Of a DNA stretch of 21,174 bases, positions 5,597 through 6,866 are shown piece after piece. The notes below the pieces were generated by a model, which was not told where the DNA came from, did not search any database, and worked only from the letters and a program-made list of their open reading frames with translations. This DNA is from a virus: IMG/VR virus record IMGVR_UViG_3300021338_000072, positions 1 to 21,174 of that record; one strand, given 5' to 3'. The translations under genes were made by a program, and so were the position numbers. Positions within the stretch are counted from its first letter, which is position 1, and every line of letters begins with the position of its first letter.

Positions 5597-5747
5597 CATT
5601 GGAATAGGCGAGATTCGATACTCGCATTGGTCTGCCGTAATCCTAGGAATCACAGCCCCTTTCAGCGTACTATGGTCAATTACTCCGTTCACATGGCGCA
5701 CACTGGTAATACTTGCCGCTTATTGCGCTTATACCACTATTCCAATG
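5597..5747 (-). ncRNA. tRNA-like structured element A
   Basis: No ORF. The ends form a perfect 11-bp stem (CATTGGAATAG with CTATTCCAATG). Read on the minus strand, GGAATAG/CTATTCC is a 7-bp acceptor-like stem followed by T-G at positions 8-9 and, next to the 3' strand, a hairpin with stem GCGAG/CTCGC (5608-5625) and loop TATCGAAT. That loop is a T-arm with one inserted base relative to TTCGAAT. A 10-bp hairpin with three G-U pairs lies at 5634-5656. The total of 151 nt is about twice a normal tRNA. It could be a tRNA remnant with an insertion, a tRNA-like structured RNA, or a processing element of the leftward transcript. Confidence 0.42.
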
Positions 5748-5760
5748 AGTTGTAAATATT

Positions 5761-5918
5761 TTGGTTGAGCAAGGGTTTTCACCTTGACGAGACACTTTGA
5801 TTATTACCGGACATCCTCTTACTCACACAGCTTGCAATAAATGTTTTTATCGGAAATTATCTCTTGCAATAGATGTGTCTCTCACCGGGGTTAGCGTCTT
5901 ATTCCGCCACTCAACCAA
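5761..5918 (-). ncRNA. tRNA-like structured element B
   Basis: No ORF. Closed by a perfect 9-bp stem (TTGGTTGAG with CTCAACCAA). On the minus strand the start reads GGTTGAG-TG-GCGGAATAAGACGC, very close to the 5' half of a tRNA-Leu (GTGGCGGAAT...AGACGC) but with a shortened D-loop lacking GG. Next to the 3' acceptor strand is a 5-bp hairpin CAAGG/CCTTG with a 7-nt loop TGAAAAC, T-arm-like in size but without TTCRA. A 7-bp stem GAGACAC/GTGTCTC (5789-5795 with 5875-5881) closes a long central arm. Inside it, CTTGCAATAAATG and CTTGCAATAGATG repeat at 5831 and 5863. No anticodon arm is evident. Confidence 0.42.
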
Positions 5919-6229: not shown

Positions 6230-6237
6230 TTCAAAAA

Positions 6238-6298
6238 ATTGGAGTGGCACTTAACTGATACTTGATTTAATATTCTCGTTTTGAATCACCACTCCAAT
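6238..6298 (-). repeat. 10-bp inverted repeat in the 5' leader of the 100-aa gene
   Basis: ATTGGAGTGG (6238-6247) pairs perfectly with CCACTCCAAT (6289-6298). As RNA on the minus strand it begins in the terminator T-tract and ends 8 nt before the ATG at 6229. Its ends share ATTGG...CCAAT with tRNA-like elements A and B. Within it, ATTC/GAAT can form a second short hairpin where a D-arm would be. It may be a 5' UTR hairpin, or a third, shorter member of the same structural series. Confidence 0.5.
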
Positions 6299-6329
6299 AA
6301 AAAACCCCTTACCAAAGGGTGGCAAGGGG
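6298..6329 (-). terminator. Rho-independent terminator, leftward
   Basis: On the minus strand, stem CCCCTT-gcc-ACC, a short loop, GGT-AAGGGG, followed by TTTTTTATT. Six outer and three inner pairs with a 3-nt bulge. It lies between the leftward promoter and the 100-aa gene. Confidence 0.78.
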
Positions 6330-6411
6330 CAAACCGAATATTAACCAAACTAACTATGAAAAACTTTTACTCTACACAATCCCGCCATTCGGCCCCTTTT
6401 GGGATTGTTTC
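6298..6411 (-). ncRNA. Short leftward leader RNA with terminator (attenuator or sRNA)
   Basis: A transcript from the promoter at 6417-6448 would start near 6411 and meet a strong intrinsic terminator after about 110 nt. It contains an 8-bp hairpin ACAATCCC/GGGATTGT (6376-6383 with 6401-6408) and no ORF on this strand. Everything further left would be expressed only by read-through or antitermination. The alternative is a stand-alone small RNA. Confidence 0.5.
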
Positions 6412-6416
6412 TGAAA

Positions 6417-6448
6417 CAAATATATAACTAAAGTTCGGATAAAACAAA
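6417..6448 (-). promoter_or_regulatory. Bacteroidota-type promoter, leftward
   Basis: On the minus strand: TTTG (6448-6445), 20 bp, TATATTTG (6424-6417), an exact match to the -33/-7 consensus TTTG/TAnnTTTG. Predicted start near 6411. A half-site resembling the repressor operator (6430-6441) lies between the two boxes, so the promoter may be repressed in the lysogen. Confidence 0.75.
6430..6441 (+). promoter_or_regulatory. Repressor operator half-site
   Basis: AAAGTTCGGATA matches the left half and centre of the palindrome beside the repressor gene (AAAGTTnGGnTA). It lies within the spacer of the leftward promoter and just upstream of the rightward one. Binding by the repressor encoded at 9904-10314 is inferred from the sequence match only. 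Confidence 0.45.
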
Positions 6449-6454
6449 TAAAAG

Positions 6455-6485
6455 TTTGTAAAAAAGAAAATTAAAGTTATATTTG
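6455..6485 (+). promoter_or_regulatory. Bacteroidota-type promoter, rightward
   Basis: TTTG (6455-6458), 19 bp, TATATTTG (6478-6485): an exact match to the -33/-7 consensus. Predicted start near 6492. It is back-to-back with the leftward promoter, the -33 boxes being 6 bp apart. Confidence 0.78.
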
Positions 6486-6491
6486 TCTTGT

Positions 6492-6586
6492 CGTTGTGGT
6501 AGAACGAGGAAAGATTTTCGGGTGGCCAATAGTGAAACCCATAAAGCCTCTAACGTGACTACCACAAGCGTTAGGGGCTATTTTTT
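6492..6586 (+). ncRNA. ~95-nt small RNA
   Basis: Bounded by a consensus promoter and an intrinsic terminator, with no start codon opening an ORF of useful length. Its 5' end TTGTGGTAG (6494-6502) is perfectly complementary to CTACCACAA (6559-6567) in the terminator loop, so the RNA can form a pseudoknot or switch to an alternative pairing that disrupts the terminator. It may be a regulatory sRNA, or an attenuated leader for the plus-strand genes from 6867. Confidence 0.6.
6545..6586 (+). terminator. Rho-independent terminator, rightward
   Basis: AGCCTCTAACG (6545-6555) pairs with CGTTAGGGGCT (6569-6579) over 11 bp with one G-U pair; the 13-nt loop is followed by A and six T. It ends the small RNA that starts near 6492. 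Confidence 0.82.
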
Positions 6587-6611
6587 ATACCCCATTACAT
6601 AAGGAGTGTTT

Positions 6612-6818
6612 TTAGAATTTTGACTTACTCAAAAGAGCGGAACCGTCTATAAACAAGCGAGCGCATACGGGCAGGACTGACGGCCTTGCGGTAATTTTAT
6701 CCCATAGAGGAATGTTGGTGCCGTTATGCGTGCGAGGAACTGTTTTTGCAGTTGTGGGAAACCACCGTAACCGATTCTCCAATTCGAGAACAAACGCTTT
6801 GCTAGGTAAAATCTTCAT
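6612..6818 (-). CDS. Doubtful small ORF, unrecognised
   Basis: 68 aa. The leader AAAAGCAAAACC before the ATG is of the local type, which supports translation. The protein is basic with several Pro (WFPTTAKTVPRTHNG, ITARPSVLPVCARLFIDG). Base composition is visibly more G+C-rich than its neighbours, and the residue use (many R, P, few E) is unlike the other small proteins. It may be a recent insertion, a gene from elsewhere, or a non-coding stretch that happens to be open. It lies antisense between the small RNA and the plus-strand genes. Confidence 0.38.
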   Translation of the reverse strand: MKILPSKAFVLELENRLRWFPTTAKTVPRTHNGTNIPLWDKITARPSVLPVCARLFIDGSALLSKSKF

Positions 6819-6866
6819 GGTTTTGCTTTTAAGCGTAGCGTTTTCTTAAAATCCATTCGTGAACTA

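What the first reader, a model, noticed from the sequence alone, without database searches (positions are those of the whole stretch)
5597..5918. Two consecutive ~150-nt tRNA-like RNA elements in a protein-free gap
Both elements have a perfect closing stem (11 and 9 bp) containing a 7-bp GG-initiated acceptor-like helix, then T-G at positions 8-9, and a 5-bp hairpin adjoining the 3' strand where a T-arm belongs. Element B begins like a tRNA-Leu (GTGGCGGAAT...AGACGC); element A has a TATCGAAT loop. Both are about twice tRNA length, lack a clear anticodon arm and do not share their central sequences. That combination suggests a family of phage tRNA-like structured RNAs or tRNAs with large insertions rather than random dyads. 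In A, a hairpin at 5634-5656 could be read with CUA in its loop, but position 33 would be C, so an amber-suppressor reading is weak.
Basis: partly seen in the sequence, partly recalled or inferred. Interest (0 to 1): 0.72.

Follow-up and report, generated by a model that had tools for sequence, protein, structure and literature searches.

The report
Phage tRNA look-alikes without anticodon arm
Two neighbouring ~150-base RNAs in this Bacteroidota phage copy the acceptor end and "elbow" of a tRNA but carry unrelated sequence where the anticodon should be, and many other phage sequences hold the same design, so they belong to a widespread but apparently uncharacterised class of phage RNA best known from phage T5.

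Summary
On the minus strand, A (5743-5600, 144 nt) and B (5916-5762, 155 nt) each have a perfect 7-bp GG-initiated acceptor helix, TG at positions 8-9, and a perfect 5-bp T-arm directly before the 3' strand. The window has two such strict elements; 300 shuffles average 0.01. Two independent seeds converge on a family: B's D-arm (GTGGCGGAANNAGACGC) and the T-arm type found in A (GCAGG-TATCRAAT-CCTGC). Each returned >100 viral-contig loci, most with a covarying acceptor, a tRNA-Leu-like D-arm, a central domain of any sequence and length, and the T-arm. Acceptor pairs change on both sides at 7/7 positions. A covariance model built without window sequence recovers A and B. Cultured relatives: an unannotated element in the phAPEC8 tRNA array, and T5 RNA1 and RNA3, annotated as tRNA-like RNAs. 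Decoding tRNA, tmRNA, intron and pseudogene readings are not supported. Best guess: tRNA-like processing yields stable non-decoding RNAs that occupy a host factor reading the tRNA top half. Identity is strong (~0.9); function is inferred (~0.35). No RNA evidence exists for this phage, and no close relative of it was found.

The parts
5600..5743 (-). Element A: tRNA-like RNA, 144 nt (GGAAUAG acceptor to discriminator A)
   Evidence: covariance-model hit with a model holding no window sequence, 29.3 bits, E 7e-5 in 132 kb and 1e-5 on the window alone; fold z -2.8
5737..5743 (-). A: acceptor 5' strand GGAAUAG, followed by U8 G9 (5736-5735)
   Evidence: sequence
5705..5735 (-). A: D-arm-like hairpin with expanded loop (GGUA...UACC around UAAG...)
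   Evidence: MFE; other members also have expanded or UAAG-type D-loops
5663..5705 (-). A: long central hairpin CAGUGUGC...GUACGCUG, in place of an anticodon arm
   Evidence: MFE
5629..5659 (-).
   Evidence: MFE
5608..5625 (-). A: T-arm GCGAG-UAUCGAAU-CUCGC with the family's 8-nt loop
5601..5607 (-). A: acceptor 3' strand CUAUUCC (discriminator A at 5600, no encoded CCA)
5762..5916 (-). Element B: tRNA-like RNA, 155 nt
   Evidence: carries the 17-nt family motif; covariance-model hit 23.3 bits, E 0.0026 in 132 kb and 4e-4 on the window; fold z -2.2
5910..5916 (-). B: acceptor 5' strand GGUUGAG, then U8 G9 (5909-5908)
5894..5907 (-). B: tRNA-Leu-like D-arm GCG-GAAUAAGA-CGC, the family motif
5787..5893 (-). 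B: variable central domain; long arm closed by GAGACAC (5881-5875)/GUGUCUC (5795-5789); holds a 21-nt direct repeat
   Evidence: MFE; repeat
5770..5786 (-). B: T-arm CAAGG-UGAAAAC-CCUUG (UGAAA-type loop)
5763..5769 (-). B: acceptor 3' strand CUCAACC (discriminator A at 5762, no encoded CCA)
6417..6448 (-). Bacteroidota-type promoter TTTG-N20-TATATTTG of the leftward transcript likely to carry B then A
   Evidence: pattern match, 0.14 expected in the window; inference that it drives A and B
6304..6330 (-). Intrinsic-terminator-like hairpin in the leader of that transcript

Best explanation
Identity (about 0.9): A and B are two members of a widespread family of phage-encoded tRNA-like RNAs that keep the top half of a tRNA-Leu-type molecule (7-bp acceptor, U8 G9, short D-arm, 5-bp T-arm) but have no usable anticodon arm; the space between D-arm and T-arm is filled by sequence of almost any kind and length. 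T5 RNA1 and RNA3 and an unannotated element in the phAPEC8 tRNA array are cultured relatives. Function (about 0.35, inferred): they are transcribed in phage operons, cut out by the host tRNA-processing machinery (RNase P at the acceptor 5' end, 3' trimming, CCA addition where not encoded) and persist as stable RNAs that cannot decode. Constraint lies on the elbow (D-loop and T-loop) and on acceptor pairing, so the likeliest role is to engage a host protein that reads the tRNA top half, as decoy or competitor. A tRNA-targeting defence factor or a tRNA maturation or quality-control factor is the leading candidate, because several members sit inside phage tRNA arrays of the kind known to counter such defences. 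Shown here: the architecture, its covariation, its spread and its context. Inferred: expression, processing, stability in this phage, and the decoy role.
For: Two strict elements in the window against 0.01 per shuffle. D-motif-seeded sites: 52 of 111 have perfect acceptor plus perfect T-arm, against 3.5 (max 9) with acceptors permuted; T-arm-seeded sites: 78 of 98 have a 7-bp acceptor plus U8, against 5.4 (max 12). Covariation in 20 short members: 97% of cells paired, acceptor 7/7 pairs changed on both sides, score 0.594 against 0.154 shuffled and at most 0.112 when slid. The model from those 20 recovers A and B, phAPEC8 and ZCKP1, T5 RNA3 and RNA1, and most of the seeding loci, some with two or more elements. 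D-loop and T-loop types are coupled: UA-type D-loops with UGAAA-type T-loops 16 to 2, other D-loops with UANNNAAU loops 26 to 2, Fisher p 2e-8. Neighbouring genes are mostly on the same strand (170 of 217 within 300 nt). 27 of 130 elements lie within 1 kb of a tRNA; the immediate downstream tRNA is Thr(UGU) in 7 of 20 cases, p 2e-4, and Thr(UGU), Asn(GUU) and Lys(UUU) are targets of the PARIS nuclease that T5 tRNAs counter (PMC12409363). NCCA follows 16 of 123 elements, against about 2 expected.
Against: No expression data for this phage. Most members, A and B among them, encode no CCA, and the discriminator base is variable. Most members (103 of 130) are not within 1 kb of a detected tRNA, so the tRNA-array argument covers a minority. 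The phAPEC8 element encodes no CCA although tRNAs in that array do. The decoy idea does not explain why the central domain is long (median total length about 125 nt). The model scores genuine tRNAs at roughly 10-39 bits, so A (29) and B (23) rest on motif, geometry and missing anticodon arm, not on score alone. Sequences are related to each other, so the D/T-loop coupling may partly reflect two lineages, and the loop classes were defined after seeing the data.
Confidence: 0.4

Rival explanations
1. Natural tRNA scaffold: the tRNA-like shell only stabilises and processes the RNA, and the variable central domain is the working part (antisense, guide, or protein-binding cargo).
For: The central domain is long and differs between members while the shell is kept. 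In A the central hairpins are stable and in B a 7-bp stem closes a long arm.
Against: Across 51 members the central domain is hardly more structured than dinucleotide shuffles (mean z -0.36), and it shows no excess antisense match to the phage's own sequence (9.6 against 9.6 nt). Members of 62-75 nt have almost no central domain.
Confidence: 0.27
2. Processing punctuation: the tRNA-like fold recruits RNase P and 3' nucleases to cut polycistronic phage mRNA, separating genes; the excised RNA has no role of its own.
For: Elements lie between co-oriented genes and keep the acceptor/T-arm helix that RNase P reads (established knowledge). In the window B and A sit between co-oriented small ORFs.
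Against: A minimal RNase P substrate needs no D-arm, yet the D-arm sequence is among the best conserved parts and is coupled to the T-loop. T5 RNA1 is annotated as a stable RNA.
Confidence: 0.18
3. Translation or charging role: a non-standard tRNA (for instance leucylated by LeuRS, which does not read the anticodon) or an interrupted or suppressor tRNA.
For: The D-arm is tRNA-Leu-like, discriminator A occurs in 54 of 125 members and in both A and B, and ACCA is encoded in 11 of 123.
Against: The discriminator is not conserved. There is no clear anticodon arm with a 7-nt loop in the 62-97-nt members. ARAGORN finds no tRNA in the window and Rfam no tRNA or intron family. The CUA reading in A has C at 33.
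Confidence: 0.1
4. Decaying tRNA-Leu genes (pseudogenes) acquired by phages.
For: The shell resembles tRNA-Leu.
Against: Acceptor pairing is 99% intact with compensatory change at all seven pairs and loop motifs are conserved across unrelated phages, which decay would not preserve.
Confidence: 0.03
5. Chance dyads in an AT-rich gap.
For: Short dyads are common.
Against: 300 shuffles: mean 0.01 strict elements, maximum 1, against 2 in the window, and family-wide covariation.
Confidence: 0.01

Closest known systems
Phage T5 RNA1 and RNA3 (AY543070; 'tRNA-like stable RNA with unknown functions', 'putative tRNA-like RNA')
   Same: acceptor and T-arm of a tRNA, tRNA-Leu-like D-arm in RNA1 (CCGGAAUUGGUAGACGG), 8-nt T-loop CAUCGAAU in RNA3, no decoding role assigned; RNA1 is annotated as 144 nt, as long as A
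   Different: T5 RNAs lie in a large tRNA array; the window phage has no detected tRNA. RNA1 has a normal 7-nt T-loop and the full GG-bearing D-loop; in the alignment to the model both lack one acceptor pair.
Unannotated element in the phAPEC8 / ZCKP1 tRNA array (Phapecoctavirus)
   Same: 7-bp acceptor, UA at 8-9, GCAGG-UAUCGAAU-CCUGC T-arm
   Different: only 77-78 nt; D-arm of the UAAG type; sits between tRNA-Asn and tRNA-Thr
Phage T4 small stable RNAs rnaC and rnaD (species 1 and 2)
   Same: small stable phage RNAs beside tRNA genes; rnaC has a T-arm-like 3' part
   Different: lack the GCGGAA..AGAC motif; not hit by the model
tRNA-Leu
   Same: D-arm sequence and T-stem
   Different: A and B lack the anticodon arm and the D-loop GG, are about twice as long, and are not called as tRNA by ARAGORN or Rfam
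tmRNA tRNA-like domain
   Same: acceptor plus T-arm with a long insert instead of an anticodon arm
   Different: G3-U70, the alanine identity pair, is present in 2 of 121 members; no tmRNA found by ARAGORN or Rfam in the window

Membership tests
Phage tRNA-like RNA family defined here | 7-bp acceptor helix directly following a 5-bp T-arm | tested here: met
   A and B, perfect Watson-Crick
Phage tRNA-like RNA family defined here | U8 then G/A9 | tested here: met
   UG in both
Phage tRNA-like RNA family defined here | D-arm GCGGAA(n)AGACGC or UAAG-type loop | tested here: met
   B exact motif; A a UAAG-type loop with an inserted hairpin, which is weaker evidence
Phage tRNA-like RNA family defined here | T-loop UANNNAAU or UGAAA type | tested here: met
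   A UAUCGAAU, B UGAAAAC
Phage tRNA-like RNA family defined here | recovered by a model built without it | tested here: met
   E 7e-5 and 0.0026; 1e-5 and 4e-4
T5-type tRNA-like stable RNA | tRNA top-half architecture without decoding arm | tested here: met
T5-type tRNA-like stable RNA | accumulates as a stable RNA | not testable with these tools
   needs RNA from infected or induced cells
Functional tRNA (Leu or suppressor) | anticodon arm with 7-nt loop and U33 in a cloverleaf that tRNA finders accept | tested here: not met
   C at 33 in the only candidate loop of A
tmRNA | G3-U70 pair | tested here: not met
   A has A-U, B has U-A at 3-70; 2 of 121 in the family
Intron-containing tRNA (group I or II) | match to an intron family | tested here: not met
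   no Rfam family at gathering score; the inserts are also short for a group I intron (own knowledge)
Rfam tRNA family RF00005 | gathering score reached | tested here: not met
   nothing up to E 10

The most novel reading that the evidence does not exclude
A very widespread and so far unrecognised class of phage RNA: non-decoding tRNA mimics that present the acceptor and elbow of tRNA to jam or mislead host tRNA-targeting defences or tRNA-handling enzymes, with a freely evolving central domain.
Probability: 0.25. Interest if true: 0.85.

Novelty: new variant of a known kind. Interest (0 to 1): 0.66.

Why it matters
Phage T5 and T4 have long carried small stable RNAs of unknown function. The results here turn the T5 tRNA-like ones from oddities into members of a family present in many unrelated phages, with a defined core (acceptor, D-arm, T-arm) and a model that can find more. 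Standard tools miss them: ARAGORN and Rfam do not report A and B and rarely report members elsewhere. Because cultured members exist in coliphages, and because phage tRNAs are now known to counter tRNA-cleaving immunity, their role can be tested directly in laboratory strains. The design also resembles the engineered tRNA scaffolds used to stabilise RNA in cells.

Tried and rejected
Close relatives of this phage: no useful DNA match in phage records, no exact match to A's T-arm, no relatives of the adjacent 107-aa or the 187-aa proteins; loci found through the exonuclease and methyltransferase genes show no such elements. So conservation within this phage's own lineage could not be tested. Antisense to own phage: no excess. 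Structured cargo: little or no excess. Conserved protein partner: the commonest neighbour cluster occurs in only 6 loci. A Watson-Crick contact between one D-loop base and T-loop position 4 gave p 0.014 in one of 16 tests and is not claimed. tmRNA: rejected on G3-U70. T4 rnaC/rnaD: motif absent. Literature: no paper describing the family was found in the open-access library; subscription papers, including the original T5 RNA work, were not searchable. Bacillota sample: most of the 25 hits in 199 genomes have tRNA length, and the three short ones read are ordinary tRNAs by ARAGORN; two hits are long members (118 and 142 nt), one of them among phage genes.

Full report
What was checked. The window is a 21,174-base virus record with an integrase at the left end, a Dam methyltransferase, a repressor-like regulator, NinG and a large terminase. 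One protein close to the finding is about 70% identical to proteins of Flavobacterium phages 23T, 1H and 6H and Riemerella phage GRAP2, and Bacteroidota-type promoters are present, so the host is most likely a member of the Flavobacteriales. Between 5560 and 5926 there is no ORF of 50 aa or more.

The observation. Reading the minus strand, element B runs from 5916 to 5762 and A from 5743 to 5600. Both start with GG, have a perfect 7-bp acceptor-like helix, UG at positions 8-9 and a perfect 5-bp hairpin directly before the 3' acceptor strand. Both fold better than shuffled sequence (z about -2.2 to -3.1). Under a strict definition the window holds two such elements and 300 shuffled windows hold 0.01 on average, never two. 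ARAGORN and Rfam report nothing.

A family. In a large share of them the motif is preceded by seven bases that pair, 60-240 nt downstream, with seven bases lying directly after a 5-bp T-arm. Many of those T-loops read UAUCGAAU, the loop of element A. A second, independent scan with that T-arm type (GCAGGTATCRAATCCTGC) gave 119 loci, again mostly with a matching acceptor and often with the same D-arm motif. Permuting acceptors between loci destroys the signal: 52 of 111 against 3.5, and 78 of 98 against 5.4. In 20 short members every acceptor pair changes on both sides while 99% of acceptor cells stay paired, and sliding or shuffling removes it. A covariance model from these 20, with no window sequence, finds A (E 7e-5) and B (E 0.0026) in a 132-kb search (window alone).

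Anatomy. Constant parts: acceptor helix of free sequence; U8 and usually G9; D-arm GCG-GAAnnAGA-CGC or a UAAG-type loop, sometimes with an inserted hairpin; T-arm usually near GCAGG/CCUGC with an 8-nt UANNNAAU loop or a UGAAA-type loop. Variable part: the stretch between D-arm and T-arm, so total length runs from 62 to about 250 nt with a median near 125. D-loop and T-loop types go together (16:2 against 2:26, Fisher p 2e-8), which suggests contact between the loops, with the reservations that the sequences are related and the classes were drawn up after seeing the data. A carries the UANNNAAU loop and B the UGAAA loop, so both sub-types sit side by side here. Loci with two or three members recur (for example L036, L056, L061, L063, L109).

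Known relatives. The phAPEC8 and ZCKP1 tRNA arrays contain an unannotated 77-78-nt member; in phAPEC8 it lies between tRNA-Asn and tRNA-Thr. In T5, RNA1 (144 nt) is annotated as a tRNA-like stable RNA of unknown function and RNA3 (73 nt) as a putative tRNA-like RNA; both align to the model and by eye share its parts. T4 rnaC and rnaD do not carry the motif.

Context. 27 of 130 members lie within 1 kb of a tRNA. Where a tRNA follows within 100 nt it is Thr(UGU) in 7 of 20 cases, more than its share of all tRNAs in these loci (p 2e-4), and Asn(GUU) precedes four members. Those tRNAs, with Lys(UUU), are targets of the PARIS nuclease AriB, which T5 tRNAs can overcome (PMC12409363). T5-like phages lacking the tRNA-rich region are viable but lose infectivity against retrons Eco2 and Eco7; there the effects were traced to ORF75 and tRNA-Tyr, not to tRNA-like RNAs (PMC11555353). 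No protein neighbour is common to the family. NCCA is encoded in 16 of 123 members (about 2 expected) and the discriminator is variable.

How it may work. Constraint on the elbow and acceptor, with none visible on the anticodon region, points to recognition by something that reads the top half of tRNA: RNase P, CCA-adding enzyme, other maturation factors, EF-Tu, or a tRNA-directed defence. I consider maturation as a tRNA followed by a decoy or competitor role most likely (about 0.35), a scaffold for the central domain next (0.27), and mRNA processing signals third (0.18). Central domains show little excess structure and no excess of antisense matches to their own phage, which weakens the scaffold idea without excluding targets in the host. 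A decoding tRNA, tmRNA, an interrupted tRNA, pseudogenes and chance are contradicted as set out in the rivals.

In the window, the leftward transcript probably starts at the promoter at 6448-6417, passes a leader with a terminator-like hairpin at 6330-6304, the 107-aa ORF, then B, A and a run of small ORFs. This is inference from sequence.

Limits. No relatives close enough to test A and B within their own lineage were found. Seeds were chosen from the finding, so the family census is partial and biased to members with those exact motifs. Model scores overlap with true tRNAs. The literature search covers open-access papers only.

Noticed in passing
window 6232-6298 (-): A third hairpin with the same start (AUUGGAGUGGUG...CCACUCCAAU then UUUUUU) but no T-arm; weak model hit (11.6 bits, E 0.44). 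Could be a terminator or a truncated relative.
   Followed up: partly
window 6295-6366 (-): Leader RNA ending in an intrinsic terminator, with a sub-threshold match to the Bacteroidetes FopS sRNA family (20.8 bits, gathering 56).
   Followed up: no
window 6455-6600 (+): Divergent Bacteroidota promoter followed by a short RNA in which GUGGUAG...CUACCAC could compete with a strong terminator-like hairpin, as in an attenuator.
   Followed up: no
window 6600-6866 (+): Second stretch without a clear gene, folding somewhat better than shuffles on the + strand (z -2.1) but not on the - strand (z 0.0); a 68-aa ORF on the minus strand overlaps it.
   Followed up: no
L157:2720-2867, L115:1729-1878, L243:3744-3953: In some members a tRNA or a tRNA T-arm seems to be embedded inside the tRNA-like element or its seed match, as if whole tRNAs can be inserted in the central domain.
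   Followed up: no
L095, L108, L156, L174, L210, L229, L257: tRNA-like element followed within 5-66 nt by tRNA-Thr(UGU) in otherwise different phages.
   Followed up: partly
L263:1501-1642 and L261:1501-1618: Long members (142 and 118 nt) in Bacillota genomes; the second lies between phage-type genes.
   Followed up: partly
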